Of a stretch of 64,000 nucleotides of DNA, positions 7,800 to 62,846 are shown piece after piece. Source of the stretch: Linum tenue (taxonomy: Eukaryota > Streptophyta > Magnoliopsida > Malpighiales > Linaceae); contig CAMGYJ010000008.1 of NCBI GenBank assembly GCA_946122785.1, positions 25,073,475-25,137,474 of the forward strand. Direction: 5' to 3'. The notes below the pieces were generated by a model. It did not search any database. It saw only the letters and a list, made by a program, of their open reading frames with translations, and had not been told where the DNA came from. Position numbers and translations under genes: made by a program. Numbering within the stretch: the first letter of the stretch is position 1; each line of letters begins with the position of its first letter.

Positions 7800-7996
7800 T
7801 AAAGGGCAAGCAAGTTCTTAGCGTTTTACTTCGTTGATTTTTTCGCCATCTTTCTCTGGTAAAGGTCAGTTTGTTTATCGATCGGTTTCTCTCTCTAAAT
7901 TCCCATTTGAGTTTTTAGATTCTGGGTTTTGATTATGTGCAGCAAAATGATGTTTTCGCAGTTGGGTTTTTTTTTTCTTCAGGTGGGAACGAAAAA
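7800..7996 (+). other. 5' UTR with intron of SR34-like gene
   Basis: Pyrimidine-rich leader. A GGTAAAGG donor-like site lies near 7800 and again near 7860, and the tract TTTTTTTTTCTTCAG ends at 7981, sixteen bases before the ATG. A 5' UTR intron is typical for this family and is inferred here. Confidence 0.45.
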
Positions 7997-36298: not shown

Positions 36299-37810
36299 AT
36301 TGAACCTAGAGGTGGCAATTATGATCCAAATCCATGAATCCAATCCAATCCATCCACCAAATTATCCACCTAATCCAATCCATTTAAATCCAATCCATTT
36401 GATCCAAATCCAATTGGATTGGTGGATTCATGGATCAATCCATGGATCCAAATGGCAAATTATGATTTGGTACCTATATTTTTTATACTTTACATTTTGG
36501 TACCTAAAATTTATATTTTTATACGAAAAATATCATTGGAAAATTACGTTTTGGTACCTAAATTTTTTCATTATGACATTTTAGTACCTAAACTTTTCAA
36601 AATTTACATTTTGGTCCATGCCTTGGATGTTATTTGGATTCATGGATCAATCCACCAATCCATTGGATCCAATCCATGAAGGGGCTTGCTATTTGCCGCC
36701 AAACAAATTGCTATTTGCCGCCAACTAAAAAAAAAAAAAGAAGTATATATGTACATCTTTGGTTAAGAAATTTCACAATCTACAACATATCCAACTTTCA
36801 GAAAACGTATTGAATCAGAAAAAATCGACGCTCGCCGGAAAAGTCGCCGGAAAACCATCGGGAAAGCCCATCCTCGACGTAAACTGCGGACACGCATCCA
36901 TGAATCATCACTAAGCAGGTGCGTCAACCTCCCATCGTCCTCAATCGTCGGAAAACAAGTAAGTTTACTTTTTCCGGCAAGTTTTTCAATTTTCCGGCAC
37001 TTTTCCAGTTTTCCGGCGAAAAACACGGTGGGCCGAAAAAAATTTGCGGCCGGTGCGCCGCCGGGCCGAAAAAATCTTGTGGCCGGTGCGCCGCCGGACC
37101 GAAACTTTTTTGCGGCCGGCGCGACGCCCGGCCGAAATATTTTTTCGGCCCGTCGTCGCCCCGGCCGCAAATTTTTTTCGGCCGGTCGCCGAACGCGCCG
37201 CCGTGAATTTTTCCGGCGGCGCATTCGGCGACCGGCCGAAAAAAATTTGCGGCCGGAACGCCGCCGGGCCGAAAGAATTTTTCGGCTGGGCGTCGCGCCG
37301 GCCGAAAAATTCTTTCGGCCCTGCGGCGTTCCGGCCGCAAATTTTTTTCGGCCCACCGTGTTTTTCGCCGGAAAACTGGAAAAATTGCCGGAAAATTGAA
37401 AAACTTGTCGGAAAAAGTAAACTTACTTGTTTTCCGACGATTGAGGACGACGGGAGGTTGACGCACCTGCTTAGTGATGATTCATGGATGCGTGTCCGCA
37501 GTTTACGTCGAGGATGGGCTTTCCCGATGGTTTTCCGGCGACTTTTCCGGCGAGCATCGATTTTTTCTGATTCAATATGTTTTCTGAAAGTTGGATATGT
37601 TGTAGATTGTGAAATTTATTAACCAAAGATGTACATATATACTTTTTTTTTTTTTTTGGTTGGCGGCAAATAGCAATTTGGTTGGCGGCAAATAGCCGTT
37701 CACATCCATGAATCCACCAATCCATTGGATCCAATCCATTTGATCCATGGAGCCACGAATCCAATCCACGAATCCACGAATCCGATCCAATTGCCACCTC
37801 TAATTGAACC
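36299..37810. mobile_element. hAT-type MITE, TAGAGGTGGCAAT family, copy 2 (with nested insertion)
   Basis: Element 36307-37802 starts TAGAGGTGGCAATTATGATC and ends CAATTGCCACCTCTA. Perfect 8-bp duplication ATTGAACC at 36299-36306 and 37803-37810. It is split by the palindromic element 36681-37703; without that insertion it would be about the size of copies 1 and 3. Confidence 0.9.
36672..37712. mobile_element. Mutator-like foldback element, 1-kb near-perfect palindrome
   Basis: Element 36681-37703 with 9-bp duplication ATCCATGAA (36672-36680, 37704-37712), the size typical of Mutator-like elements. The two arms meet near 37195; over the roughly 200 bp I compared directly they differ at only about four positions. 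Ends carry CTATTTGCCGCC twice in each arm. The centre is GC-rich with repeats of GGCCGAAAAA and CGCCGCCGGGCC type. Long open frames on both strands here are low-complexity by-products. Confidence 0.85.
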
Positions 37811-43278: not shown

Positions 43279-43283
43279 ATTAA

Positions 43284-43686
43284 TGTGGGAAACACAATTA
43301 TTTGCAGTTTTTGGTTATTTCGTATTAGAGTCGGTTTTTATTGATTGGGGTATTATTTGGGTATTTGGGGGAATAAACAGGGAGTTAATTGTTACGTTTT
43401 ATTATTCGGGTAGCAGTTAGGAATTAGACAGGTTATATAATCTGTAATAGGGTCTTATTTTGAGATTAAGCAATAACAGAACCAAAACCTAAATCCTAAA
43501 CCTCTCTCTTCCCTCTCTCCTGCGAATTCTCTCTCTCCCTCTTTGCTCCAAAGCTGCGGCAGCAGCTCCTCTTCTTCCCTCTTCTTGTTCTAAAAATCCC
43601 CCATTCTAATCCCTAGTTAGATCAATCCCTAATTGATCTAGCTAATTCCCCCAATTCTCATCCTGTAGGAATCCTTGTTTCCTACA
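43284..43686 (+). repeat. 5' LTR of gag-only retrotransposon
   Basis: 403 bp, TG...CA ends; contains a pyrimidine-rich leader (CTCTCTCTTCCC-type) and a TATATAA-like box near 43434. Confidence 0.95.
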
Positions 43687-43749
43687 TCTGGTATCAGAGC
43701 CTGGCTCGAGAGTGAGTTCATCTGAACTCTTGAACCAGGGAAAGCAACG

Positions 43750-45858
43750 ATGGTGACAACGAAATCGATGAAGGCGGCGGAGGAGAAGGCCCAGGCAGCC
43801 GAGAGGAGCACCGGAACGGGCGGTGTTGATCGCGACGAGGTGGTGATGGAGGACCTTACCGAGCTGGAGGCGGTGAAGGAGGTGGTGCACGAGCACTCTG
43901 ATGCGCTAGCCAGGCTCGAAGAAGGCCTGGCAAGAGTGCAGGCTGAGGCGAAGGAGGATGCTGACGATCTGCGGCGAAGGCTGGAGGACCTGATGAGGGC
44001 AATCACCTCGTTGCAGGCAAAGGGAGGCGAACCAGAGAGAGCGCCGAAACCGGCTGAGCTGACGAACGAAGGGGGCGGCGGCTCGGGGGCGGCGGAAGAG
44101 GCGGCTGGAGATGGGAGCACCGCGGCAGCGGCGCTAGAGGCGCCGGCGGGGGCGAGGGCCGCGGCGGCCGGGGCCGGTAGCGGAGCCGGCGGCGAGACGG
44201 GTTCGGCGAGGGCGGCGGCGGCTCAGGCGGTCGCGCCGAGTGAAGGGGCCGAGGGGAGCAGGGTGGCGAACACCGGGCCGGCCAGGGCTGATCGGACTCC
44301 ATTAGGGCTGGGCTCGGGCCTGTTACCGACACCCACGGCCCAAGAAATTGCGGCCCGAAAGGGAAAGGCTAAGATGGTTGGGTATGACGCCAATGGGCCT
44401 CCTATGAATGGTGGGCCGGGACAGATGGGCCAGTATACGAGGGTCCATAACGGGCTGGGATGGCTGGACCAGGAATATGGGCCCGAGTATGACCAACTAA
44501 GCTTGGCGGGCCAGCAGGCCCAGTGGGCTGAACAGGAGGTGAACCAGAAGGGGGCTGGTGGGCCGAGCAGGGCCGCCGACCAGGTGGGGCCAGGCGGGGC
44601 GGCTCCTTTTGGGCCGGGACAGGCGGACGGGCCAGGAGGGGGTCGGACCGAACCGGAGCGGACCGGTATTGGTCGGACCAGTGTTGATCGGACCGAGTTG
44701 AGCCGAACCGGACCCGGGCGGACCGGGATGGGTCGACCCGAGGTAGGTCGAACCGGGCATCGACCGAGTCCAACTACCCAGCCGAACCGGAGGGCGGACA
44801 GCAGGGGTCCAGGAGGAGGAGAGGGCCATTATGAGGCGCCTCATGTCCCAGGGGAATACCCGAATCAGCCGGGTTGCTATCCGGGTGACTATGGACATGG
44901 GAATCCTAACCAGATGCAGTGCTCTCAATGGGGGCAGCCATGGATGACGCCAGGAAATGACAGGTATGGGTCCCAGTATCCAAACTATGAGGGAATGGAT
45001 GGGATAGTTTTTCGAGCTAAGCCTCCTACCATTGAGTTTCCAAAATTCAATGGGCAGGAGGATGCAGGTCTTTGGTTGTATGCAGTTGAGAGGTGGTTTA
45101 AGAATCACCCAATTCCGGAGGAGAGGAAAGCCTACCTGGCATCGTTCTATCTGGAGGGCGATGCGCTCCAATGGTGGGAGTGGATGGAGAGATCCTATGC
45201 AGCAGCAGCAACCTTGATCACCTGGCCCATGTTTCAGGAGGAGCTCCGTTATCAGTTTGGGAAGTCAGATGGGTGGGCTCCTGAGCAGTTGGCAAAGCTG
45301 AAGCAGACCGGCACAGTGGCAGAGTACCGGGCGGAGTTCTTCAAGTTGGGGAACCAGTGCAAGGGAGTCTCGGAGGACACCTTGGTGGGGTTGTGCATGG
45401 CGGGTCTCAAACCCGAGATAGCAGCGGCAGTCAGGGTGTTTGAGCCCGATTTCGTGAAAACTGCTTTTCGTCTTGCAGGTCATAAGAAGGAAGAACTGGC
45501 TAGCTGGAGAAGCACCATTGGCCGCTTCTCAAAGCCAAGCGGAGGAGGAGGAAGCAGCAGTGCTAGTGGCGGCATAGGTGGGGCACCCGGGGGAGGCTCG
45601 ACTGGGGCCAATGCGGGCGGTGGAGGACCAGCTCCGGTGGCCAGGGTGGGGCAGCGGGCCATACCGAAGGGATTCGTGCGACTGACACCGGCAGAGATTG
45701 AGCAAAAGAGGCGGGAGGGCAAGTGCTTCAACTGTGATGGCCGGTTCACCATTGGTCATCAGTGCCCGAAGCCGGATTTGATGATGCTGGTTGGGCGCTG
45801 GGAAGATGAAGCAGAAGAAGAAGCTGAGGATGATGGAAATGGAGGGGAAGATGCCTAG
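43750..45858 (+). CDS. Retrotransposon Gag (Ty3/Gypsy-type) with zinc knuckle
   Basis: Structural protein expected to form cytoplasmic virus-like particles and bind element RNA. 702 codons, uninterrupted. Residues about 30-95 are a charged coiled coil. Residues about 100-410 are Ala/Gly/Pro-rich, then carry Arg-Thr repeats of the form GRTxxxRT. The Gag domain is at about 420-590, with FPKFNGQEDAGLWLYAVERW, FYLEGDALQWWEWM, TWPMFQEELRYQFG and VAEYRAEFFKLGNQC. A Gly/Ser linker follows, and the knuckle CFNCDGRFTIGHQC at 659-672 (CX2CX7HXC, a non-canonical spacing). An acidic tail ends the protein at 45858, 53 bp before the 3' LTR, leaving no room for pol. Confidence 0.93.
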   Translation: MVTTKSMKAAEEKAQAAERSTGTGGVDRDEVVMEDLTELEAVKEVVHEHSDALARLEEGLARVQAEAKEDADDLRRRLEDLMRAITSLQAKGGEPERAPKPAELTNEGGGGSGAAEEAAGDGSTAAAALEAPAGARAAAAGAGSGAGGETGSARAAAAQAVAPSEGAEGSRVANTGPARADRTPLGLGSGLLPTPTAQEIAARKGKAKMVGYDANGPPMNGGPGQMGQYTRVHNGLGWLDQEYGPEYDQLSLAGQQAQWAEQEVNQKGAGGPSRAADQVGPGGAAPFGPGQADGPGGGRTEPERTGIGRTSVDRTELSRTGPGRTGMGRPEVGRTGHRPSPTTQPNRRADSRGPGGGEGHYEAPHVPGEYPNQPGCYPGDYGHGNPNQMQCSQWGQPWMTPGNDRYGSQYPNYEGMDGIVFRAKPPTIEFPKFNGQEDAGLWLYAVERWFKNHPIPEERKAYLASFYLEGDALQWWEWMERSYAAAATLITWPMFQEELRYQFGKSDGWAPEQLAKLKQTGTVAEYRAEFFKLGNQCKGVSEDTLVGLCMAGLKPEIAAAVRVFEPDFVKTAFRLAGHKKEELASWRSTIGRFSKPSGGGGSSSASGGIGGAPGGGSTGANAGGGGPAPVARVGQRAIPKGFVRLTPAEIEQKRREGKCFNCDGRFTIGHQCPKPDLMMLVGRWEDEAEEEAEDDGNGGEDA

Positions 45859-45911
45859 TGAGCTGGAGGAACAACCTTGGGGACAAGGTTGTTTTTCGAA
45901 GGATGAGGGGA

Positions 45912-46314
45912 TGTGGGAAACACAATTATTTGCAGTTTTTGGTTATTTCGTATTAGAGTCGGTTTTTATTGATTGGGATATTATTTGGGTATTTGGGGGA
46001 ATAAACAGGGAGTTAATTGTTACGTTTTATTATTCGGGTAGCAGTTAGGAATTAGACAGGTTATATAATCTGTAATAGGGTCTTATTTTGAGATTAAGCA
46101 ATAACAGAACCAAAACCTAAATCCTAAACCTCTCTCTTCCCTCTCTCCTGCGAATTCTCTCTCTCCCTCTTTGCTCCAAAGCTGCGGCAGCAGCTCCTCT
46201 TCTTCCCTCTTCTTGTTCTAAAAATCCCCCATTCTAATCCCTAGTTAGATCAATCCCTAATTGATCTAGCTAATTCCCCCAATTCTCATCCTGTAGGAAT
46301 CCTTGTTTCCTACA
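45912..46314 (+). repeat. 3' LTR of gag-only retrotransposon
   Basis: 403 bp, matching the 5' LTR except for GATTGGGATATT against GATTGGGGTATT. Confidence 0.95.
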
Positions 46315-46427: not shown

Positions 46428-47672
46428 CTAAGTCCCCAGAAACTTGATCTTTGGTTTAGCAGTAGTTCCTTTAAAAAAGTAATCCACCAGTTGAGAAGGA
46501 ATATCTTCAGCTTCCACAATCAGCAACTCCAATCTCGTAAAGGGACAGGGTTGTTGTTCCAGAAACTCGAACAATTCACTCAGTGCCTACATAGAACAAA
46601 AAACCCAACTTAACATTCAAGGTAGAAGGAAGGAATCACTTACCATTCACAGCATTTACTTAGCAAAGTATACCTGAATGGTCCAGAGATGCAGCTTCAG
46701 AGATTTCACATTACGCAAACCTTGGAACAAGATGATCAAATCTTGCTCCACCTCGACCCGTTCCCAGTCATCTTCCATGTGACGGACATGAAATTGGATA
46801 CGAGCATGATCGAGGGAAGGAAGGCTTAAACTTGAGAAATGTAAGAGCGTCCAGTCATTCCAAAGACCGAAGAACCTGAGCTTCGGGGCAAATACTTCAA
46901 TGTCCGGACACATACGCCCAAGTTTAAGGCTAATCAAGTTCGACCCGGAGACCCTGAGGATCCCACAACTGGTGCAACCAGTCAAGACAAGGTTCTCCAG
47001 ACTTGGGAATTTAGAAAAAGGATCAAGATCCCCTTCAAAAGTGCAAAGCATTAGGCAGTTGTCTAAATGTAGGCTCGTCAGCAACCGAAAACCAGTCGAT
47101 TCATATCCCCTATCCAATGGGACGCCATTCAGTTCCAGAGTTTCGAAATTGGAATTCAAGATCGAGCCGAACAGCTCGAAGAATCTGAAAGCTCGATGAT
47201 CCCCATAGTCTTTCAAGCTAATCACCAAATGTTGAGTAGTCTGACCTGAAGCCGCAGCTTGGATTAGCCTAATCAACAGATCAGGGTCTCTGTCCTCCGA
47301 ACTCTCATCGTCGGAGTAGCTAACTTTGCGTGCATTGAGAGGATGGCGGAGAGACAAAACCTTGTCCACGCAGCTACGAAAACTCGAGTAATGCTGGAAA
47401 GAATCCCGACGAAGATCGAAGACAGGGACATGCTTCCACGTGGAGCTCCACGATCGGGACAATGCAGAGGTCTGAACGGCTGATTTGGTGTCCAGAAACG
47501 AAAGGATGTTATGAATAATGAAGTCTGGAAGCTGGCTTAACCTGTCTGCAGCATCATCGTCTTCTTCTTCTTCTTCTTCTTCTTCTTCTTCTTCTTCTTC
47601 TTCTTCTTCTTCTTCTTCTTCTTCTTCTTCTTCTTCAACAGTCCTTCTTCCAGCTTCCCCAAACTCACTCAT
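46428..47672 (-). CDS. F-box protein with leucine-rich-repeat-like region and poly-glutamate tract
   Basis: Probable substrate receptor of an SCF ubiquitin ligase. Two exons, 47672-46674 and 46586-46428, with a GT-AG intron, give 385 residues. The chosen start at 47672 gives MSEFGEAG; an upstream in-frame ATG at 47723 would add 17 residues. After 25 consecutive Glu codons come DDD and the F-box (about residues 44-85: RLSQLPDFIIHNILSFLDTKSAVQTSALSRSW). An LRR-like segment follows with LTSLHLDNC, FPSLENLVLTGC, LKLGRMCPDIEVF and LPSLDHARIQF. Exon 2 ends IPSQLVDYFFKG as in plant F-box/LRR proteins. The target is unknown. The gag-only retrotransposon sits about 110 bp beyond the stop codon and may lie in the 3' UTR. 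Confidence 0.85.
47562..47636 (+). repeat. Coding trinucleotide microsatellite (TTC)25
   Basis: Twenty-five uninterrupted TTC units on the plus strand, read as 25 GAA (Glu) codons in the F-box gene. Confidence 0.97.
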
Positions 47673-48132
47673 GGCGTTTTTGAAAGCAGGAAACAATTGC
47701 GAACCTATCACCACAAATAGCAAGGATCAGGAACGAACGCTAGAGGGTTAAAATGAATCACCATTTTCCACAAGGACTAGAAATATATGTTCCGATGAAT
47801 GCTACACTCTAGGGTTTCGCTGCAGATAAAGGGGATGGGGGATTTCAGTTAGGAGGGAGAATATGACTTAACTGTAAATAGTGGTTGTTCAGTGCAGCTA
47901 GGGAAGCGTGGGTGGCTCCTGACCGAGTTCCTGAATCCCGGCGGTGGAGGAGAGAGTCCACGGTGGAGGCGGCGGTGGTCAGCGACGATCGACGTTGGAG
48001 CAGAATCGAAGAGGAAAATAACTGGACGGTGAAGAGAGAGGGAGCAGAGGGGAGAGAGGAAGAAGGTAAAAGGCCAAAAGCACATAAGTGTCTCATCTAG
48101 CTCGCTGGCTCTTGAGACGCGGGAACAGTTTA

Positions 48133-48620
48133 GGAAAAAAATTCCAAAATACTCTAATTATTAAAAAAAATTCCTCAAATACAATACTTATAAATTTTTT
48201 TCTCAAAATACAGCAGTTTCAACATCATTGTCTTTGTCTTCGACAGTGATGAAGATCACCGCTTTAATCCAAAACGGGAAGGTATCACCGCTTTTGAGTA
48301 CAACGGGGAACACATCACTGCCTCGGACCACAACAGTGATTGCTTCACCGCCTCGGACAACAACAGTGATTGCTTCACCGCCTTGGACCACAACAGTGAT
48401 TACATCCTCGCCTTTCACAAAAAGGTGATAATTGATCGCCTCACCGCGTTTATGGGAAACGGTGAAAACATCGCCGTTGACCAAAACGGTGATAATTAAC
48501 CACGTTTTAGAACCCTGGTAGGTGGAAAAATTAGGTCACAGCGACCTAGCTATCACCGCTTTGGACAACAGCGATGATGTGTTCACCGCCATTGTCCAAA
48601 GCAGTGATTAGCTGCCATTT
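48133..48620 (+). repeat. Left TIR of MULE with ~30-bp subrepeats
   Basis: The outer 90 bp are AT-rich and paired with the right end. From 48240 there are tandem units near 30 bp such as AACAGTGATTGCTTCACCGC (repeated at about 48331 and 48361) with variants up to about 48610. Confidence 0.88.
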
Positions 48621-48799
48621 TTTCCTATAAATTCCGACGCCCACTTCCTTCCTGCTGCCTTACAGCAACCAAATACAACAACCCCTGTTTTTTTAGTCGA
48701 TTTCTCAGCTGGTTTGGAGTTGGTTTACTGCTCAAGAAACTCGTCGGATTCGGTATGTTAGAATTATGTATTGTTTACATTTTGATGTGTAAGTATTAT

Positions 48800-49120
48800 A
48801 TGTCTGTATTTAGTGAATTGCGGTTATTAGAAAATATGTTATGATATATTTAGATTAATTATGATATGATAGATGTTAGTTAGTTAGTACTGAATTTAGA
48901 TTAATTTGTTTAGTTTTCTCATGATAGATCGGGATTGAGTATGTTATAAGTATGTATTTTTTACATGTTGAGCTGTTAGTATGAATATGTCTGTATTTAG
49001 TGAATTGCGGTTATTGGAAAATATGTTATGATATATTTAGATTAATTATGATATGATAGATGTTAGTTAGTTAGTACTAAATTAGATTAATTTGTTTAGT
49101 TTTCTCATAATAGATCAATT
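48800..49120 (+). repeat. 187-bp tandem duplication upstream of MULE transposase
   Basis: TGTCTGTATTTAGTGAATTG at 48801 recurs at 48988 and the similarity extends through GATAGATGTTAGTTAGTTAG in both copies; AT-rich leader region. Confidence 0.85.
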
Positions 49121-49211
49121 AGTTGCATTTTATTATGGGTTTGGATGATATTGTTTTTGTATCCATAATGTACTAATTGTATACTATACTTAATTATTAT
49201 AAATTGCAGAC

Positions 49212-52103
49212 ATGGGTAAATTTAAGAAGTTTCGGCTTATTATTTGGTGGAATGGTCGGGTGACAAACTCGAACATTGGGATCGACTATGAAAATGGCGA
49301 ATCCAATATGCTTAAAATTGAGTCGAGATTCTCGTGGCAAGAACTCCATGACAAGTGTGCAGAAAGGACTTGTACGGGCGGGCAAAGGAGAGTTCGTCAA
49401 ATTACTTACCGGTATCCCAACATGAGTGCTGACGGAGTCATGTACGAAAAAGTTGTCATAAATGATGATGACGCGGTGAACATGATTATACAGTTCATAT
49501 CTGAGAACGGGTTGCGGCTTGCAGAGGTGTATGTCGAGACCGAGCCGGTCGGTGAAACTCATTCTCACCAGTATTCTTATGATGATGGTTTTGCAGGAGG
49601 GTATGGCTGGGGTGGTAGTTCAAGTAACTACGGAGCAGGTACTTCTGCAGGAGGGTATGGTTGGGGAGGTACTTCAAGCAACTACGGAGGAGGTAGTTCT
49701 GAAGGAGGTGTTGGGTGGGAAGAATACCTGCAACATGGTGGTGAGACTGCCGTCGATATCGTTCAGCCCGACGGTGATCAATGGCCTGCTTGGGGTCCAT
49801 AGTGGGGTGACATTGAAAACACCCTTCGATCTGGGCGTACTTCGCATGACCAAGAAGGCGATGCTGGTAACGATGACCATCCTGAGCCGAGCTATCCATT
49901 CGCCTCCAGTGACGATGAAAGTGAGGAAGATTTGAGATCAGTCAGTGAGGAGGAAGATACGGACGATATCGATGACAGTGAGGTGGCGTTCCGACAGGCA
50001 CCAACGCCTTACTACACAGAGGTTCCTGATCAATTTTTATATGGTCAGAAGTAGAACGATGCCCCTGACTTTCGGCCCATGCCTGTGTATAATCCGACTG
50101 CTAATTTGGAAGTGGGTATGGCGTTCACTTCGAAAGCCGATGTGCAAGACGCTTTTAGCGAAGAAGCCATGCGGCGTAACTTCGAATGGAATGTAAAATA
50201 TTCTGACAAGGGACAACTGCATGTCATTTGTAAGAATGCTGGAGAGGGTTGTATGTGGCAACTTCGTGCTGCATATATGAAGAGAAAGGGCGTCTGGGTC
50301 ATGCGGACAGTAGAGAACAACCACATATGCTCCTCAACCATACTTTCACAGGATCACCGGCAACTGAAAGCAAAAAAAGTGGCAAGAACCATTAAGCACC
50401 TTATCGAGGCACAACCAGATATCAAGATAAAAGCTATCATGGCGGAGGTGAAGGATCGACACTCCTACACCATAAGGTATAAGAAGGCGTGGCATGGGAA
50501 GCAGAAGGCCATGGCTGAGGTCTACGGTGATTGGGAAGACTCGTATGCTTTACTCCCCAGACTAATGTCCGCAATGGAGGAGTCCAACCCTGGGACGGTT
50601 TTCTTGCCGTGGTACAACAACGTAGAAACTGAAGATCAAGTTCGAGTACAGAACGAGTTGATGTTTCATCGTCTGTTCTGGACATTCAAGCCATGCATTG
50701 ACGGGTTTCCCTTCTGTATGCCAGTGATTCAGGTATATTACGGACTCAAAATATTGTACTATTTCATTACTTTACTAATTTCAATTTTTACTAACTCATT
50801 ATTCATTTTAACAGGTTGATGGAACTTTTCTTACTGGGAAGTATAAATGAACTCTTCTTATTGCCACTGGGGTTGATGGAAATTTAAGTATTTTTCCCTT
50901 AGCATTTGCATTAGTTGAAGGGGAGAACAACCTAAGTTGGGCATGGTTCTTTGACCAGCTACACGCCCACGTCACACAAAGAATGGGTATTACAATTATA
51001 TCGGATCGACATGCCGAGATTAAACACGCCGTCCGTGGTTTCCCCGACGAATGGGGATGGACATGGCGCTGGTGTATTCGTCACTTCCTAGCCAATTTCC
51101 AACACAAATTTGGCAAGAAGAAAGACATAAGAGATCAATTGTGGAGTGCAGGTAGTAATGTAATTCAGTGCTTGTTCATGGTTTATTGTTCAAATGAAAT
51201 TTCTTATGGCTTAATTATTAATTCTCCGGTCTTGTAGCGGTTGCACATCAACAAAAAAAGTACGAGCAGAAGATGAAGACGATCCGTCAAATACACCGGG
51301 CGGGAGCAGTATGGGCAGAAGGTCAAGATCTGCACATGTGGACATTTCACATGGACAACGGGGCTAGATTCGGAATTGCAACTACCAACCATGGCGAGAG
51401 CATAAATGGAGTCTACAAGGGCATTAGGGCAATGCCTGTATCTGTCCTAGTGGAGATGACATACTGGAAGGTAAACGAGTGGTTTGTGAAGAGACGGGAT
51501 GCTGCTATAGGGAGGGAGCGTGCTGGTCATTCAATAGCTAAGCATATATTTGATGGCATGCAGAAGATCGAAGAGAAATCAGGTAAGCACAGAGTTGTTC
51601 TGTTCAACCGCAATGAAGGTATTTTTGCTGTGCAAACAGGTATCTGGGGTGGAGGAAGACGTGGGCATAATCGTCAATCTGTTACTCTACACGTAGAAAC
51701 TCGCACCGGAGAGTGTACATGCCAAAAGTATCAAAACAGAAGAGTACCTTGTTCACATGCAATGGCAGTAGCTAAGTCGATAACCCTCAACGCTTACAGT
51801 TTGGTTAGTCCTTACTACACGGAACAGGCGATCAGGAACTCCTACTCGTCAAGTTTCAGCCCCCTGCCGGATGAAGCTTATTGGCCTGTAGACAATGGGA
51901 AGTTGATTATCCCACCGTTGCACTTAAAGCGCACCAAAGGTCGTCCTAGGACCGAAAGGATTCACAATGAAATGGACCAATCACAACGTGCCCGACGGGG
52001 TCCAAAGCGTTGCTCAAAGTGCAGACAACCGGGTCATGACAAGAGGCGTTGCCCAGGTCCACCTCTAGAGCAAGATTCGGGGCCAATTCCGAACCAACCT
52101 TGA
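49212..52103 (+). pseudogene. MULE transposase (mudrA-like), three premature stops
   Basis: DDE transposase of the Mutator superfamily, probably three exons: 49212-50732, 50815-51151 and 51238-52103, with GT-AG introns and consistent phases, about 907 codons. Order of domains: N-terminal ubiquitin-like/PB1-type region (residues 1-105), Gly/Tyr/Ser-rich linker, MuDR DNA-binding region (NLEVGMAFTSKADVQDAF, FEWNVKYSDKGQLHVIC), catalytic core (VDGTFLTG, then IISDRHAEI), SWIM zinc finger (CTCQKYQNRRVPCSHAMA) and a C-terminal CCHC knuckle (CSKCRQPGHDKRRCPGP). In-frame stops occur at 49800-49802 (TAG), 50052-50054 (TAG) and 50848-50850 (TGA, where a Gly is usual after GKYK). No frameshift was seen. 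Active protein is therefore not expected. Confidence 0.9.
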
Positions 52104-52199
52104 TGCTGCTGTTGTTCACTTCCTTGTTTTAATCTTGTTGAGTAATTTTCGTTGTTGTGATGTTTAATTTGGACTACTTGTTTTAATCTTGTTGAGTGA

Positions 52200-52433
52200 T
52201 TGTAATAAAGGGCGTTTGTTGTTCATTTTGGTAGAACATGGGGGGTAAACTAAGCAAACCCAAACCAAATTTAGACAACATAGATAGTTCATGGAAAACA
52301 ACACAATCCGAAACCAAATTTAGAAACATAGGTAGTTCATGGAAAACAACACAAACCCAAACCAAATTTAGAAACATAGATAGTTCATGGAAAACAACAC
52401 AAGACCAAACTAAATTAGAACGGCATAGATAGT
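52200..52433 (+). repeat. ~48-bp tandem repeats between the convergent MULE genes
   Basis: Units with ACCAAATTTAGAAACATAGA and TAGTTCATGGAAAACAACAC start near 52264, 52313, 52361 and 52404. They end at the stop codon of the PMD gene, so they probably lie in the overlapping 3' ends of both transcripts. Confidence 0.85.
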
Positions 52434-55287
52434 TCACTGGTTGTCTTCATTTCCCTCCACTTCCCCTTCTCTTCCTCTTCCTCTTCCTCCACTACCTCCT
52501 CGGCCCCTTCTTCCGCCCTCTCTACCTCCTCCTTCTTCACGAGCCCGCTGGACAACTGCGCGCGGATTCCTCTTAACCCGACCACCCAACGGAGTGTAGA
52601 TAGGTGGTGGGGGTGGAGGTTGCTGAGATGGACCAGAAGCGTGGTAGAAAGTTGATGATGTATGTTGTTGTTGCGGGGTCTGATACTGAGTAGTTTGTTG
52701 CTGATGGTGGTAGTGAGGGGTGCCTTGGGTGAACATGTCATGCTCCTGAGTCGGGGCATAGCTTGACGACCATCCGGTGCCCTCAGTACTAGTAGCCCAC
52801 TCACAATGTGGCCATGGTTCAGGAAGTTGAGTTTGCTGAGACGGACGAAGCTCTTCAATGTGTTCTCTCACCCTTCTTCTGCTCCTCCGTGGGGGCTCTT
52901 GTGGGGGCACGATCCTCTCATCAGCACGGAATGAAGGTCGGGCCGGAGCAGGCACTGGAGGGTATAATATGACATCCCTCCTTTGCTCTCTGGTACAACA
53001 GAGCAGGTTGTTGAAAAGCCTGCGCAAAAAAGATGTCTTCCGCTCATCCATGGTGGGTGCACTCTCGACGGTGTGCTTCGCATGCTCCAAACCGTCAACC
53101 TAATAAATTGTTGTACAAAATTAACTAACATTAAATCTAATAATGATTTCTATCATCTAATAATGTTAATTAACATTCTAGCTAATATAGGCATGTAATC
53201 ATACTACAAAAATTAAAACAAATAGGCCAAAAATGGAATTCACTTACCACTGCGCCCCAAACAGCACCTTGCTTTGACACCCATCTTAGCGTGAAGTTCC
53301 GATACCACCGCATGTAGCCATCGTGGTACCCCATTGGCCTCGTCTCCGGCACCCCTTGTACAACCCACTGATTTCTATTCTCCCATATGTTGATGTAGAA
53401 TTCATGCTTGCGGGTCCAATCCTTTTTGGTGTAGCGTAGGTCAATGGCGTGGAGCTCCCTGAACCCTTGAGGTGGGGATGCTGGAATTGGTTGCTCCAAT
53501 CGATATTGCCTCAAAGATCGATCGGGCAGGTGCCATTCCACCATGTGCCAGCAGATTAAGGGCACCTTGCACAACCATGTCTCTTCATCCTCAGGATGTC
53601 TAAGACGATGCAACTCAACCACTTCATTTGGATATGGATCCCATACCGCCTACAATCATTATAGTCATGGAATTAATAAAAATTATATCCACTCCACCTA
53701 AAAAATTGAAAATCATTAAATTTTATATTTTTACCTGGTTCCACCAAGGCTTATCAAATTTAGCACGATAAAACAGTAAAGAGTGTTCGGGCTGGTGGTC
53801 GTTTGTATTTGCTCCGATCCACCTAATTAAGCAAAAGTACGTATATAAGCAATTTTTAAAGCATAGATGTTTACTTGTTAAGTATGATTGTATGGAAGCA
53901 TCTAAATTGAACTAAAATTCCTTACTTGGCAATAATCTAAATAAGCTAAATACGATTTGGTTAGAATAAATCTGCTTACTTGGAAGATATCTAAATTCAC
54001 TAAAATACTATAATTGTAGACTTAAAATGTCTCTAAATTCGCTTAGATAGTTCACTAGCTTAGTTCACTAAAATACTATAATTGCACACTTAAAATGTCA
54101 CTAAATTCGCTTACTTGGAATAGATCTAAATTCACCTAACTAGCTACCATTGCATATCTAAAATAAATTCAAATTAAATTGAACTTACTTGAAACCATAT
54201 GGGGGATTTGCTACAAATCGTAGCTCATCATCTGGCAACCAGAATTCCCGAGGGTCTCGAGGTGCGAGAAACGGAAGATGCTCCCATGCCCAGAGCTGGA
54301 GTATGAACATCGCACCACCAGCTTGTTTCGCTCCCAACTTCGAGCAAGTACACAACTCTGGGTAGATCCCATTCAAGACGGCCGACCCCCAGCTTTTTTG
54401 CCCGATCTCGTCCCAGTCACCGAGGAGCATATTTAACCACATGCCTTGTATCCACCGGTTTGACTTGTCGGGGAACAGAAACCCACCAACCAAGCCAATT
54501 AGGTAGACACGTGCATACCGCTCCACCTGATCTTCAGGAGTATCCGGGCCTATATTAACCTCCATCTGGATGTGGTCAACAAGCCACGGGATCGATACTT
54601 GCCCCACATTCAGTGGTGGATGCCCCTGACCTTCGACGGGCGTGGTGGTCGGCATGTTGAACCCCAAACGTTGTTGAATCAATGGCCCCCAACCATCTTC
54701 TGGTTTTCTCGAGTTGTCGATGATGGCATCTCCAGTGATCGGGAGCCCGGTGAGGATGGCAACATCTTTGAGGGTGATCGTCATTTCACCCTCGGGAAAG
54801 TGGAAGGTATGCAGCTCGGGGCGCCATCGCTCTGCCATTGCCGTCAGCAGATCATTGTCAATATCAAGCCTCATAAAGTGCCTCAGCATGTGCAATCCCG
54901 TCCTCTCTAGATAGGGCTGCAGTCGATCATTCCAACGGGGCAATCGACATGTCCCTCGATGACTGATGAGAATAAGTGATTCCTACAAAACAAAAAACAC
55001 AATATTGTCAGTCAATAGAAAGAAAAATAAAAACTTTAAAACTATTGAAATAATTTTAGTGTGTCTACCGGATTATTGTTCCAAATTGAACGGGAGCGAT
55101 GTTGATCTTGCCCGGTTAAATACCTTCGATCCCTTGGGCCAGGATCGATATACAATCTAGGGTCGTATATCTCAGCACCCATCTATAAAAAAATATGAAA
55201 TCAAATCAATTTAAATTTTAGCACCCATGTAACAAAATCACAAAAGAATAAAATAAATTTACGTACTCTCAAAGCCTCTTCGTCCAT
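52434..55287 (-). CDS. Plant mobile domain (PMD) protein encoded inside MULE
   Basis: Related to the MAIN/MAIL1 family, which in Arabidopsis works with phosphatase PP7L in gene expression and transposon silencing; PMD domains are also known from transposons. Six exons: 55287-55267, 55182-55069, 54982-54189, 53822-53735, 53649-53248 and 53099-52434, all GT-AG with phases that add up to 694 residues and no stop. N-terminal YIDPGPRDRRYLTGQDQHRS is followed by the PMD core: RHFMRLDIDNDLLTAMAERW, TFHFPEGEMTITLKDVAILT and GLPITGDAI. Further PMD blocks are ARVYLIGLVGGFLFPDKSNR, MFILQLWAWEHLPFLAPR and, in exon 5, RLRHPEDEETWLCKVPLICW. The last exon is Gln/Pro-rich, then Arg/Gly-rich, suggesting nucleic-acid binding. 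It is convergent with the transposase gene, echoing the mudrA/mudrB layout of maize MuDR. Confidence 0.88.
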
Positions 55288-55509
55288 TTTTTGCCGAAAA
55301 GCTAGCGAGAGTATCGACAAAAAACAAAAACTCTAGTAATTCTTTCTGATGCGGAAGATCGGACTTAGCCGCAACCACAGAGCATACTTAGAACGAAACT
55401 AGAGTGAAGTAATGGAGGGAGCAAGAAGTATAAAATTTGGTGGTGTGGTTTGGAATGGGGGGAGTGGTATTTATAGGGGGAAGGGAGGGGAAAGAGGCGC
55501 TGGAAATTT

Positions 55510-56063
55510 AAAGCGGCCAATCACCGCTTTCCTCGGCTGCAGTGACAACACCGCTCCAGTCAAAGGCGATGATGGGCGGATCGCTGACGTGGCGAGGCGT
55601 GAGGCGTCGGATCGTGGAGAAAAACCACAATCCGTGCCTCACCGCATCCAACGGCAGCGGTGAAGGGCGCGGATGGCTGACGTGGCGGGGCGGGGCTATC
55701 ACCGCTTTCGTCTTAGGCGGTGAAGTCCCCGCTCCTCGCCACGTCAGCGATCCGCGCCAACTTCACGGTTTTGCCCATCAACGGTGATAAAGGCTTCACC
55801 GTTTGTCTCATCAACGGTCAAGCTATCACCGCGTTTGTTTAGGGCGGTGATAGCTTCACCGTTTTGGACCAAAACGGTGATAGCATCACTGTTGTTGTCT
55901 AAAGCGGTGATGCTATCACCGTTTTGGTCCAAAACGGTGATAGCCATCACTGTCTTGGTCTACAACAGTGATGTTGAAACTGCTGTATTTTGGGAAAAAA
56001 GTTTATAAGTATTGTATTTGAGGAATTTTTTTTTAATAATTAGAGTATTTTGGGATTTTTTCC
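55510..56063 (-). repeat. Right TIR of MULE with ~30-bp subrepeats
   Basis: Inverse of the left end. Repeats of GGTGATAGCATCACTG / AAAACGGTGATAGC type at 55790-55975, plus a GC-rich subterminal stretch at 55540-55750 not matched on the left. Confidence 0.85.
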
Positions 56064-56648
56064 AACAGTTTATAGGAAGAAATCATAAATGGGTTTCTAC
56101 TTTCTAGTATTGTTATTTGTCGAAATTACTATTTGTTCCTCATAAATTTTGTGAAAAAATGTCAATTTTTTTTCTTTTTAATTTGTTTGCAAAGTAGATT
56201 TAAGTAAAATAAAATTCCAACAACACAATTTTTTTCATAAAAAAAAATATATTTAGGCAAATAAATCATCGGCATAGAAAATGATAAGTAAAAGGAAAGG
56301 TAAAAAAAATTGATTTTCCGACGAAAAAGAGATTTTCCGGCAACCAGTGCATTGTTCGATAGTTGGAGTCAGACCGGTCAAGACCATCTGACCATGTGTT
56401 TCGGACCATACTCAGTGTCGTTTGGTAACCGTCGTTAACTATTAGAAACCAATTAACACTATTTTTGTTTGTTTATAATTTTATACAATGATATTATATT
56501 GAATAGTTATATATGTATGTATGTATGTTGAATAATTATTATATAAATAAATCATGAATAATTAAAAGTCATCATAAATATTATAAAAGTTAATGGGTAA
56601 TTACAAGTTCTAATTAATTCAAATTAGGTCTAATCCTACTCTAAATGG

Positions 56649-57081
56649 TAGAGGTGACAATTAGAATCCAAATCCATGAATCCAATCCAATCCATCCATC
56701 AAAATATCCACCTAATCAAATCCATTTGATCCAAATCCAATTGGATTGGTGGATTCATGGATCAATCCATGGATCCAAATGGCAAATTATGATTTGGTAC
56801 CTATATTTTGTATATTTTACATTTTGGTACCTAAAATTTATATTTTTATACAAAAAATATCATTGGTAAATTACATTTTGGTACCTAAAAATTTTCATTA
56901 TGACATTTTAGTACCAAAACTTTTCACATTTTACATTGTGGTCCAAACCTTGGATGTCATTTGGATTTATGGATCAATCCACCAATCCATTGGATCCAAT
57001 CCATTGGATCCAATCCATTTAATCCATGGATCCACCAATCCAATCCACGAATCCACGAATCCGATCCAATTGCCACCTCTA
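56649..57081. mobile_element. hAT-type MITE, TAGAGGTGGCAAT family, copy 3
   Basis: 433-bp element starting TAGAGGTGACAATTAGAATC and ending CAATTGCCACCTCTA. The interior is closely similar to copy 2 (outside its nested insertion). No convincing 8-bp duplication is visible, so flanks have decayed or rearranged. Confidence 0.83.
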
Positions 57082-57091
57082 GTTAACTGTT

Positions 57092-58350
57092 TAGATGGCT
57101 AATAATAATATTGCAATCTTGACAAAGTAAGGGTAATAAATCTGTTGCAGAAATAAAGACATTAGCCTTGTTTTTTCAAGCGTGAAATTTTAGGCCCACG
57201 TTTCAATTTCAATTCATCATCACGCATCATTTCAGTGACATTTTCAATCGAACCGACAAATTTTATATGTATCAAGCATTGTACTTATGGTAATTCTAGA
57301 AAGTAAATTATTACCGTGTTTATGTTTCTCCCCATGCCCCATTGTCTAAAAACAAATTCATATACATCAAAAGACCACAAACAGAGAAGAGGTTGACTGT
57401 TAAGATTTAGTGATTGACATAATGATGAAAAGTTCGATGGAGGACTGTCATAGATTGTGTAATATCATGTTCAGAAAGAAGGTTGACCGCACTGTGAAGA
57501 TCAGGTTGAATGGTTATTACTAGGGATATCTTGATAGCTTACCAGACAATTGCACTTGCCAGTTCAGCTGGATAGTCCGAGTGGCCACCCTTTCGATTTA
57601 CTAGTATTTCACGGATAAATACTTTAATGCTTTGAAAGTTTTCCTTCTTCACCAAGCTCCAAAATCACAAAAATTTGTTTACACGTCTTTAGAGTGATAA
57701 ACCAATAATGTATAGATTATTTATAGGGCTTTTGTTCCATTTAATTCGGGTGAAATGATAGCAAAGTTCTTATTTAAACGAAAACCTTTCTAGTGCTGAA
57801 ATCTTATTCCAATTCTAATGACATAATAATTAATAGTCGATTGTTCAATTGTACCGGCAACCATTATTTTCTTTCTAATAGTGGAGTCTCATTGCAATAC
57901 TGAAAATGCTTCTAGTGGTAAAATCTTGTTCCATCCCGATATAATAATGACTAACCAATCTAATGAAGTTATAGATCATTATTTTCCTTGTAATGATGGA
58001 GAATCGTTAGAATAAATTAAGTGTACCATATGACCAATCGTTTTTCATAAGCGATCAACCTTTTTCCAACTTATGTTAGATTTTTGTCCAGTCAATATGT
58101 TGTTGATGGATAATAAAAAAAATTGGCGCCCAATTCTTATGACGTTTTAAGACCCTAAGAAATGACCTTTTATTAAATTTGTTTGCAATGTTAATCACCA
58201 ATCCGCTGTAGCAATTTGGCAAATTTCTCCTTTCATGAAATCTGGGTTCAACTCCCGGTAGCGGAATCTTTTTTTACCACCCCTTCTTTGCTGTAGGTTA
58301 CTTGATCGCAGTCGAGTGTACGACTGGTTAAAATTGAGAAATTTGTAACG
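57092..58350 (+). repeat. Dispersed duplicated block, copy R1
   Basis: Shares long stretches with R2 (58712-59700) and R3 (62009-63970), for example AAAGACCACAAACAGAGAAG at 57370, 58731 and 62301, and GTGAAATTTTAGGCCCA at 57182 and 62076. It ends with a tRNA-like sequence at 58202-58265. No protein-coding capacity recognised; the type of element is unknown. Confidence 0.8.
58202..58265 (+). ncRNA. tRNA-like sequence, copy a
   Basis: 64-nt sequence with acceptor-type ends TCCGCTG / TAGCGGA, A-box TAGCAATTTGG, T-arm CTGGG-TTCAACT-CCCGG with B-box GGTTCAACTCC, then a T7 run. The middle (anticodon) part is about 8 nt too short for a standard tRNA. Differences from other copies keep pairing as G-U. 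Confidence 0.5.
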
Positions 58351-58711
58351 CTTATTGATTTTGGGTTGACGATTATAAATTTTTTGGTATTTCACAAGGA
58401 GGAGAATCATATTATTCACTAATTATACACACTCTCCACCTACACAGTAAAACTTGAAAATCATAGTAAATGGAGTAACATGATAAACAAAAATTCAAAT
58501 TTCACTCAATGGCTAACTAACTCAGTGTAATCGATAACTTGTCTTCGCATTAGGATGCTACCTTAAGAGGTGAACTCCAAATTCCGAGGGTTCATATCGT
58601 CTTCATTCTTCTTTTGTATATCAATCATTCGATCTTCTGATAGTGCAGGTTTCTTCAGGACCAGTGCCGTCAAAATTATGATTTTAGATAAATAAAGAGT
58701 TAGTATCAACA

Positions 58712-59700
58712 AATGCATATACATCTAAAGACCACAAACAGAGAAGAGGTTGACTGCTATGATTCTGTGAATGACCCGATGATGAAAAGTTCGATGAAGG
58801 CCATCATAAACAGTGTACTATCATGTTCAGAAAGAAGGTCGACCGCACTGTGGAGATCAGGTTGACTGGTTCTTACTAGGGATATCTTGATAGCTTACCA
58901 GACAATTGCACTTGCAAGTTCATATGGATAGTCGGAGTGGTCACCCTTTTGATTTACTAGTATTGCACGAACAAATACTTTTATGTTTTGACATTTTTCC
59001 TTCTTCACCAGGCTAAAAAATCACAAAAGTAAATTTGCACGTCTTTAGAGTGCTGCTAAACCAATAATGTATAGATTATTTATAGAATTTTATTCTGTTT
59101 AACTCAGGTTAAATAATAGCAAAGTCCTTGCTTACATTGTAACCTTTCTAGTGGTGGAATCTTGTTACAATTCTAATGACATAGTAGTCAACTAGTCGAC
59201 CGTTCAATTGTAGCGGGAACCATTATTTTCTTTCTAATAGTGATGTCTCATTGCAATACTAAAAATGCTTCTAGTAGTGAAATCTTGTTCCAACACTGAT
59301 AAGTTAATGACCAACGAATCTATTGGAGTTATAGATCATTATTTTCCTGGAGAATCGTTGGAACAAACTAAGGTGTACCATATGATCAATCGTTTGTCAT
59401 AAGTGATCGACCTTTTCCCAAATTACGTTGATTTTTGTCCAGAAGACTGCTATATGTTGTTGCTGGATAAAAAAATTGGCGCCCAATTCTTATGACATTT
59501 TTTAAAGACCCTAAGAAATATTTAATAACTTTGTTTGCAATATTAATCATCAATCCGCTGTAGCAAATTGGCAAATTTCTACTTCCTTGAAATCCGGGTT
59601 CAACTCCCGGCAGCGGATTTTTTTTGGTGAGCTGTAGGTTTCTTCATTGCAGTCGAGTGTAGTACTGGTTAAAATTGAGAAATTCGTATGGTACACAATT
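58712..59700 (+). repeat. Dispersed duplicated block, copy R2
   Basis: Direct-orientation relative of R1 and R3 at perhaps 85 percent identity by eye; ends with tRNA-like copy b at 59554-59617. Confidence 0.8.
59554..59617 (+). ncRNA. tRNA-like sequence, copy b
   Basis: 64 nt; TCCGCTG / CAGCGGA acceptor-type stem perfect, T-arm CCGGG-TTCAACT-CCCGG perfect, A-box TAGCAAATTGG, then T8. Anticodon arm shortened as in the other copies. Confidence 0.52.
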
Positions 59701-62008: not shown

Positions 62009-62846
62009 TGGCTAATATTGCACTCTTGACAAAACAAGGGTAATAAATCTGTTGCAGAAATAGAGACAAAACTCGTGAAATTTTAGGCCCAACGCTTGCA
62101 TCACACATCATTTCAGTGACATTTTTTAATCGAACCAACCAAAATTTATATGTATCATGCATGTACTCATGGTACTTCTTGAAATCACTATGAAACTCCA
62201 TTGTCTATTTGTGTAGTTTTCATCTCTTTCGAAAGTAAATCATTACCGTGTTTGTGTTTCTCCCCATGCCCCATTGTCTAAAAACAAATTCATATACATC
62301 AAAAGACCACAAACAGAGAAGAGGTCGACTGCTAAGATTCTTTGATTGACCTTATGATGAAAAGTTCGATTATTACAGTGTTTATGTTTCTCTCCTTGCC
62401 CCATGGTCATCCTTTTGATTTACTAGTATTTCACGGACAAATACTTTGGTGTTTTGACATTTTTCCTTCTTCACCAGGCTCCAAAATCACAAAAATTTGT
62501 TTACACAGTTTTAGAGTGATAAACCTATAATGTATAGATCATTTATAGGGCTTTTGTTCCATTTAACTCGAGTTAAATGATAGCAAAGTCCTTATTTAAA
62601 CTGAAACCTTTCTAGTGGTGGAATCTTGTTCCAATTTTAATGACATAACAATTAACTAGTCGACCGTTCCATTGTAGCGGCAACCATTATTTTCTTTCTA
62701 ATAGTGGAGTCCCATTGCAATACTGAAAATGCTTTTAGTGGTGAAATCTTGTTCCAACACTGATAAGGTAATGACCAATCAATCTATTGAAGTTATAGAT
62801 CATTATTTTCCTTGTAATGATGGAGAATCGTTGGAACAAACAAAGC

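What the first reader, a model, noticed from the sequence alone, without database searches (positions are those of the whole stretch)
48124..56072. Structurally complete MULE that carries a plant-mobile-domain gene opposite its transposase
Seen: perfect 9-bp duplication AACAGTTTA, paired long ends, a mudrA-like gene on plus and a six-exon 694-residue PMD gene on minus, ending tail to tail about 330 bp apart. Known: MAIN/MAIL1 PMD proteins act with PP7L in transposon silencing and gene expression, and PMD domains occur in transposons. Inference: the PMD protein may serve the element as mudrB does in MuDR, or may counter host MAIN/MAIL1-based silencing by mimicry.
Basis: partly seen in the sequence, partly recalled or inferred. 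Interest (0 to 1): 0.87.

Follow-up and report, generated by a model that had tools for sequence, protein, structure and literature searches.

The report
Two-gene plant Mutator transposon with PMD
This is one copy of a many-copy, recently moving plant jumping gene that carries, besides its transposase, a second gene related to plant gene-silencing proteins; that gene is a conserved part of the element, an arrangement already reported in other plants.

Summary
Window 48133-56063 is a Mutator-like element (MULE) with paired long ends and a perfect 9-bp target duplication; a six-exon, 694-residue plant-mobile-domain (PMD) gene faces a mudrA-type transposase, 330 bp apart. Caveat to 'structurally complete': this copy's transposase has three in-frame stops. 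I fetched 20 other copies from the host genome, chosen by the left end alone. All 20 have both ends and a target duplication (19 perfect); 16 keep at least a quarter of the PMD gene, 8 all of it; two have both genes complete and open. Genome-wide, 59 of 136 transposase hits lie within 6 kb of a PMD hit, 59 of 59 tail to tail (0.34 expected). Against two sister-family copies the PMD gene is as constrained as the transposase (dN/dS 0.18-0.19 versus 0.16-0.17). So it is a selected second gene, not passing cargo. Its function is untested; I favour a trans-acting helper against host silencing over a transposition cofactor. The arrangement is in print: Dupeyron 2019 tabulates antisense PMD genes in most MUDR-group MULEs, and Ikeda 2017 proposed capture of host PMDs and an anti-silencing use. 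New member of a known kind.

The parts
48124..48132 (.). left target-site duplication AACAGTTTA
48133..48277 (+). left terminal inverted repeat
48244..48608 (.). left subterminal ~30-bp repeats with ATCAC[CT]G motifs
48746..49116 (.). 187-bp unit, two tandem copies, in the transposase 5' region
49212..50732 (+). transposase exon 1 (MuDR-type DNA-binding domain); in-frame stops at 49800-49802 and 50052-50054
50815..51151 (+). transposase exon 2 (MULE catalytic domain); in-frame stop at 50848-50850
51238..52103 (+). transposase exon 3 (SWIM finger; C-terminal CCHC-like knuckle seen by eye)
52104..52433 (.). 330-bp spacer between the convergent genes, with 48-bp tandem repeats (52255-52436)
52434..53099 (-). 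PMD gene exon 6 (Pro/Gln-rich and Arg/Gly-rich tail, stop)
53248..53649 (-). PMD gene exon 5 (PMD profile 240-347)
53735..53822 (-). PMD gene exon 4
54189..54982 (-). PMD gene exon 3 (PMD profile 5-194, E 1e-41)
55069..55182 (-). PMD gene exon 2
55267..55287 (-). PMD gene exon 1 (predicted start codon)
55520..55974 (.). right subterminal repeats with ATCAC[CT]G motifs
55919..56063 (-). right terminal inverted repeat
56064..56072 (.). right target-site duplication AACAGTTTA

Best explanation
The interval is one transposase-dead copy of a high-copy, recently active two-gene MULE family, in layout like the MUDR/MUDRAVI2 groups, in a plant genome. The PMD gene is a core second gene of the element: convergent to the transposase, lying next to the opposite end, present in this family and in a sister family, and held by purifying selection about as strongly as the transposase (shown). 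Each gene is probably driven from its own end, as mudrA and mudrB are in MuDR (inferred). The PMD protein most likely works in trans as a helper that keeps the element's genes expressible against host silencing, by engaging or displacing the host MAIN/MAIL-type machinery (inferred; I give this mechanism alone about 45%).
For: Host genome held (692 Mb). Left end: 40 scored matches of 641 candidates. Of 20 fetched other copies (ranks 2-21 of those 40), 20 of 20 have both ends; 19 of 20 have a perfect 9-11 bp duplication and one has 1 mismatch, the search allowing shifts of up to 4 bases. PMD coding sequence: 8 of 20 whole, 8 of 20 partial (28-87%), 4 of 20 fragments at most. Two of 20 (L016, L017) have both genes complete and open. 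PMD exon 3 in the genome, the window's own included: 145 scored matches of 3012 candidates, 116 of 145 without stops. 59 of 136 scored transposase matches have a PMD match within 6 kb, 59 of 59 convergent, 0.34 pairs expected. dN/dS of the window copy against sister copies L029/L030: PMD 0.192/0.184, transposase 0.172/0.158, highest upper limits 0.24 and 0.22. Within the family, PMD is below neutral simulation at P<=0.0125 in 6 of 8 pairs. Copies L024 and L028 differ at 9 of 7751 aligned bases at different target sites. Basis for the mechanism: MAIN/MAIL1 act in transposon silencing and host gene expression (passages); VANDAL MULEs encode an anti-silencing protein (passages).
Against: No expression, protein or silencing data are available here. 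Selection on the gene does not say what it does. The PMD exon 3 fold could not be modelled (mean pLDDT 35). The split-exon PMD locus taken for a host gene is only 31% identical. In 2 of 8 within-family pairs PMD is not significantly below neutral (P 0.078 and 0.055), and for the transposase only 1 of 7 pairs is (P 0.04). Both sister copies carry defects of their own: in L029 a stop in the transposase and apparent frame shifts in transposase exon 1 and PMD exon 6; in L030 a stop in PMD exon 5, no PMD exon 2 match and no paired ends in the fetched stretch.
Confidence: 0.8

Rival explanations
1. The PMD protein is a transposition cofactor: it works with the transposase in excision or integration, as mudrB is thought to do in MuDR, and has no role in silencing.
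For: Two-gene layout with one gene next to each end, as for mudrA/mudrB (TIRA/TIRB passages); PMD constrained about as strongly as the transposase; either gene is lost in deletion derivatives. mudrB is described as apparently required for integration (PMC6446971 passage).
Against: No sequence link between PMD and mudrB was tested. The PMD proteins whose role I could read about (MAIN, MAIL1) act in silencing and gene expression (passages).
Confidence: 0.3
2. The PMD gene is recent passenger cargo picked up by chance (a Pack-MULE-type capture) with no role for the element.
For: MULEs do capture host gene fragments (passages).
Against: 16 of 20 sampled copies keep at least a quarter of the gene; a sister family has it at a PMD dS of 0.95-1.1 with dN/dS 0.18-0.19; genome-wide convergent pairing; 31% identity to the split-exon locus taken for a host gene.
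Confidence: 0.02
3. The PMD gene is a normal host gene into or beside which MULE ends happened to insert.
For: The PMD frame is open while the transposase here is broken. The asymmetry is borderline under neutrality: in the four pairs of the window copy with copies that lack PMD stops, no stop difference is seen where about 3 are expected (P 0.028-0.068).
Against: The target duplication encloses the gene, and the same gene lies inside the same ends at unrelated sites.
Confidence: 0.01
4. The PMD protein counteracts silencing by binding the subterminal ATCAC[CT]G repeats directly, as VANC binds noncoding tandem repeats of VANDAL elements (a special case of the best explanation).
For: The motif occurs 10 and 11 times in the two ~0.5-kb end regions, 27 times in the element and 7 times in the other 56 kb of the window; a sister copy has 5 and 2 and is richer in related CGGTGAA words. 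VANC targets are noncoding tandem repeats with short motifs (PMC10398659 passages).
Against: The repeats may equally be transposase-binding sites or promoter elements. I searched for no evidence of DNA binding by PMD and know of none.
Confidence: 0.15

Closest known systems
MUDR (group 50) and MUDRAVI2 (group 49) MULEs of Dupeyron et al. 2019 (PMC6446971, Table 1 read)
   Same: Plant hosts, 9 or 9-10 bp target duplications, ends of 30-320 and 80-290 bp, SWIM-bearing transposase, PMD 'in antisense for most of them' (50) or 'in most, often antisense' (49).
   Different: Group membership could not be tested: no reference transposases are held here, so no tree was made with them. Groups 42, 47 and 48 are also listed with antisense PMD.
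MULE-captured PMD-C genes of Ikeda et al. 2017 (PMC5418596, passages)
   Same: PMD on a MULE, related to host PMD genes, anti-silencing use proposed.
   Different: There described as fusion proteins with the transposase in grasses and Amborella; here a separate, convergent, spliced gene.
Maize MuDR (mudrA/mudrB)
   Same: Two genes, one next to each long end (passages); that they are convergent is recalled.
   Different: Second gene here is a PMD gene; homology to mudrB not tested.
VANDAL MULEs with VANC (PMC10398659 passages; PMC6446971)
   Same: MULE with an extra gene; noncoding tandem repeats with a short motif.
   Different: VANDALs are described as lacking terminal inverted repeats or having short degenerate ones, with exceptions (PMC6446971); no VANC-like protein was sought here.
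Host MAIN/MAIL1-type PMD proteins
   Same: PMD domain (PF10536, E 1e-41).
   Different: Inside a transposon; 31% identical over 229 residues to the split-exon locus L036 taken for a host gene.

Membership tests
Mutator-like elements (MULE superfamily) | 8-11 bp target-site duplication | tested here: met
   9 bp perfect; 19 of 20 other copies perfect, 1 with one mismatch
Mutator-like elements (MULE superfamily) | terminal inverted repeats | tested here: met
   128 of the first 150 aligned columns identical
Mutator-like elements (MULE superfamily) | MULE/MuDR transposase domains | tested here: met
   PF03108, PF10551, PF04434 above cut-off
Mutator-like elements (MULE superfamily) | intact transposase (needed for autonomy, not for membership) | tested here: not met
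   three in-frame stops in this copy; complete open transposase frames in 4 of 20 other copies
MUDR / MUDRAVI2 groups (Dupeyron 2019) | PMD gene antisense to the transposase | tested here: met
   59 of 59 linked pairs convergent
MUDR / MUDRAVI2 groups (Dupeyron 2019) | transposase falls in that clade | not testable with these tools
   no reference MULE transposases held; the search for homologous proteins was off
MuDR-like two-gene element (mudrA/mudrB) | two convergent genes, one near each end | tested here: met
MuDR-like two-gene element (mudrA/mudrB) | second gene homologous to mudrB | not tested
   no mudrB sequence fetched
VANDAL with VANC | extra gene with demonstrated anti-silencing | not testable with these tools
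   needs expression in plants
VANDAL with VANC | noncoding tandem repeats with a short motif | tested here: met
   such repeats are not diagnostic
Pack-MULE (captured host fragment) | transposase replaced by host gene fragments | tested here: not met
   transposase gene and whole PMD gene both present; PMD shared by family and sister family
Host MAIN/MAIL-type gene | PMD domain | tested here: met
Host MAIN/MAIL-type gene | not embedded in a transposon | tested here: not met
PMD-C clade (Ikeda 2017) | groups with host split-exon PMD genes rather than with other transposon PMDs | tested here: inconclusive
   tree of 20 rows: joins locus L036 and other split-match repeats weakly (79/91), inner branching unresolved (65/50), long branches meet; no named reference in the tree, clade names recalled

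The most novel reading that the evidence does not exclude
Element PMD proteins are a second, VANC-independent kind of transposon-encoded anti-silencing factor: an anciently captured relative of MAIN/MAIL, expressed from the right end, that interferes in trans with the host PMD-PP7L silencing machinery (perhaps guided by the end repeats) and explains why so many plant MULEs keep the gene.
Probability: 0.3. Interest if true: 0.8.

Novelty: new member of a known kind. Interest (0 to 1): 0.4.

Why it matters
What transposon-borne PMD proteins do is an open question, put as speculation in Ikeda 2017 and in a 2021 review (PMC8616336), passages of both seen. This genome holds a recently active family with a separate PMD gene, copies with both genes open, natural deletions that remove part or all of either gene, and a sister family. 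That makes selection on the gene measurable now, and its role directly testable. If the gene is an anti-silencer, it would show that one protein family supplies both a host silencing pathway and the transposons' answer to it.

Tried and rejected
Searches for relatives outside the genome found nothing: plasmids by protein (no match), viral contigs (1 pattern match, 0 confirmed), GTDB genome contigs (10 pattern matches, 0 confirmed). No solved structure matches the PMD exon 3 (one hit, E 0.82); the transposase C-terminal exon gave only 4 weak hits in the zinc-knuckle region (best E 0.14). A single-sequence AlphaFold model of PMD exon 3 was useless (mean pLDDT 35), so no fold search was made.

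I considered that the first two transposase stops might be spliced out. I think not: the stretch between them is matched as protein in other copies in the same frame as its neighbours (e.g. L010, L011, L020, whose printed output was cut for some copies). No other fetched copy except the duplicate L009 shows a stop at those places: at the first, 14 others have a sense codon and 5 a gap; at the second, all 19 have a gap in the alignment; at the third, 13 have a sense codon and 6 a gap. The third stop sits inside the catalytic exon.

I considered whether the open PMD frame beside a broken transposase shows special selection on this copy: borderline only (P 0.028-0.068 in four pairs). I considered whether a transition bias makes dN/dS look low: neutral simulation with the noncoding substitution spectrum gives means of 0.93-1.08, so no. 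The sister-family dN/dS has no such simulation, dropped matches under 40 bits, and its dS near 1 is partly saturated.

Full report
What is there. The window is a piece of a 692-Mb genome held as 17 contigs (G000:C8:25073475-25137474). The element spans 48133-56063 between perfect copies of AACAGTTTA. The ends are inverted repeats, 128 of the first 150 aligned columns identical. They are followed inwards by ~30-bp repeats rich in ATCAC[CT]G and its complement: 10 and 11 in the two ~0.5-kb end regions, 27 in the whole element, 7 in the remaining 56,051 bases of the window.

The two genes. On the plus strand a mudrA-type transposase gene runs from 49212 to 52103 in three exons with GT-AG introns. 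It has DBD_Tnp_Mut, MULE and SWIM domains above the curated cut-offs and a CCHC-like knuckle seen by eye. Its frame is broken by stops at 49800, 50052 and 50848. On the minus strand a PMD gene runs from 55287 to 52434: six exons, five GT-AG introns, 694 residues, no internal stop. Its PMD profile match is split, 5-194 in exon 3 and 240-347 in exon 5. The two coding ends are 330 bp apart. Exon models are by eye and by splice consensus; there is no transcript evidence.

Other copies of the same ends. A search with the left end gave 40 scored matches of 641 candidates. All 20 have both ends. Nineteen have a perfect 9-11 bp duplication and one (L019) has one mismatch, with shifts of up to 4 bases allowed. 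L009 has the window's own duplication and 99.95% identity (7924 of 7928) and is a local duplicate; L022 and L026 share one duplication and 4126 of 4131 bases and are likewise duplicates of each other. The other duplications all differ. PMD coding sequence: whole in 8 of 20 (L009, L011, L012, L016, L017, L024, L025, L028), 28-87% in 8 of 20, fragments at most in 4 of 20 (L021, L022, L023, L026). Of the 8 whole ones, 5 are open, one has a 1-nt insertion and two have stops. Whole transposase frames: 6 of 20, of which 4 are open. Both genes whole and open: 2 of 20, L016 and L017. The window's three stops are shared only by L009 among copies with sequence at those places. L024 and L028 differ at 9 of 7751 aligned bases yet sit at different target sites, so the family moved recently.

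Genome-wide pairing. PMD exon 3 as protein gave 145 scored matches of 3012 candidates, the window's own included, 29 with stops (tallied). The transposase C-terminal exon gave 136 of 2164, 38 with stops. Both lists are cut to the best-scoring hits. Of the 136 transposase matches, 59 have a PMD match within 6 kb (55 of 59 at 2.7-3.1 kb, start to start), and 59 of 59 are convergent; about 0.34 such pairs are expected by chance. The remaining 77 are not evidence of PMD-free elements, because the PMD list is cut and deletion derivatives are common.

Selection. Within the family, eight copy pairs were compared with 400 neutral simulations each that used the noncoding substitution spectrum. PMD dN/dS was 0.41, 0.49, 0.36, 0.34, 0.55, 0.51, 0.38 and 0.36. 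Six of 8 lie at P<=0.0125 and two do not reach 0.05 (0.078 and 0.055). For the transposase 7 of the 8 pairs were long enough: 0.59, 0.61, 0.55, 0.51, 1.23, 0.84 and 0.63, with 1 of 7 at P<0.05 (0.04). The pairs share copies and are not independent. A sister family at 74-76% PMD identity was sampled with two copies. L029 has the same architecture: inverted ends at 609-876 and 7930-8208, a 10-11 bp duplication, transposase on plus, PMD on minus. L030 has the transposase and PMD exons 3-6 in the same arrangement, but its left end lies just outside the stretch and its right part, with PMD exon 2, was not recovered. Both carry defects (L029: one transposase stop, apparent frame shifts in transposase exon 1 and PMD exon 6; L030: a stop in PMD exon 5). 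Between the window copy and these two, PMD dN/dS is 0.192 (95% 0.15-0.24, 679 codons) and 0.184 (0.14-0.24, 631 codons); the transposase is 0.172 (0.14-0.22, 869 codons) and 0.158 (0.12-0.20, 872 codons). Both genes have thus been held by about the same strength of purifying selection since the families split, at dS 0.8-1.1. This is the main new result here: the PMD gene is not cargo.

Relation to host PMD genes. The PMD profile finds many further loci in this genome (3510 candidates, 117 scored; 0 of 14 control genomes). I fetched 18 and built a tree of 20 rows, one duplicate-looking locus (L037) left out. This PMD, the two sister copies and L047 form a clade (100/99). With locus L036 (split match, present at two places, taken for a host gene but not tested) and another repeat group with split matches, they stand apart weakly from intronless repeats (79/91) and strongly from single-exon long frames (100/100). 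The inner branching is unresolved (65/50), and the program warns that long branches meet. Identity to L036 is 31% over 229 residues. This fits an old origin from a host PMD-C-type gene, as Ikeda et al. argue, but does not prove it; no named reference protein is in the tree and the class names are my recall.

How it most likely works. Shown: two genes, convergent, one next to each end; both conserved; family recently mobile; this copy transposase-dead and so movable only in trans if at all. Inferred: each end drives its neighbouring gene, as in MuDR; the PMD protein acts in trans. My best guess for its job is to keep the element's genes expressible. Its studied relatives, MAIN and MAIL1 with PP7L, act in transposon silencing and gene expression (PMC5418596 and PMC7156037, passages). 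MULEs of the VANDAL group carry a different anti-silencing protein (PMC10398659, passages). The rival is a transposition cofactor like mudrB. My evidence does not separate the two.

What is known already. Dupeyron et al. 2019 (PMC6446971; abstract, an introduction passage, and the sections on evolution and taxonomy with Table 1) list 'PMD in antisense for most of them' for the MUDR group and 'PMD in most, often antisense' for MUDRAVI2, with 9-10 bp duplications and ends in the same size range. Ikeda et al. 2017 (PMC5418596, passages) report PMD-C members fused to MULE transposases in grasses and Amborella, infer capture from host genes, and call an anti-silencing use 'tempting to speculate'. 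A 2021 review (PMC8616336, passages) repeats it. A 2022 paper on orchid Gypsy elements (PMC9289625, passages) notes PMD in Gypsy elements of many plants and in MULEs. A 2026 review of gene capture by plant transposons (PMC13317346) does not contain the term PMD in its main text. In ten listings of an open-licence library (only one search used a selection term) I saw no title or abstract about selection on MULE PMD genes; the papers themselves were mostly not read, so this is weak evidence of absence.

Verdict. A real, well-described element; a new member of a known kind.

Noticed in passing
window about 46696-57350 and G000:C8 about 25029.3-25039.9 kb: The element and its flanks, with most of an F-box open frame, are duplicated about 91 kb away: 99.9% identity over 9.28 kb on the element side, and about 5 mismatches plus a 33-base gap over the next ~1.4 kb; either a recent segmental duplication or an uncollapsed haplotype in the assembly.
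   Followed up: partly
window 36688-37696: A ~1-kb stretch matches its own reverse complement at 90%, a large palindrome or foldback element.
   Followed up: no
window 43283-43686 and 45911-46314: Two 404-bp direct repeats, 99.75% identical, flank an open frame with a retrotransposon gag domain (43726-45855); looks like a short, young LTR element.
   Followed up: no
window 26195-29639, minus strand: Open frames with reverse transcriptase (RVT_1), zf-RVT and RVT_3 domains, a retroelement remnant.
   Followed up: no
window 57351-58347, 58708-59688, 62231-62840: Diverged direct repeats (84-94%) beyond the right flank, of unknown nature.
   Followed up: no
G000:C6:72335360-72340142 and C6:74276458-74287230: Two pairs of adjacent long single-exon PMD frames in mirrored order about 2 Mb apart, two members with identical scores; possibly an inverted segmental duplication.
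   Followed up: no
G000, PMD frames unbroken through the domain (e.g. L038-L044): A second large group of repeated PMD genes without introns inside the domain, many with open frames of about 600-680 aa; host element type not determined.
   Followed up: no
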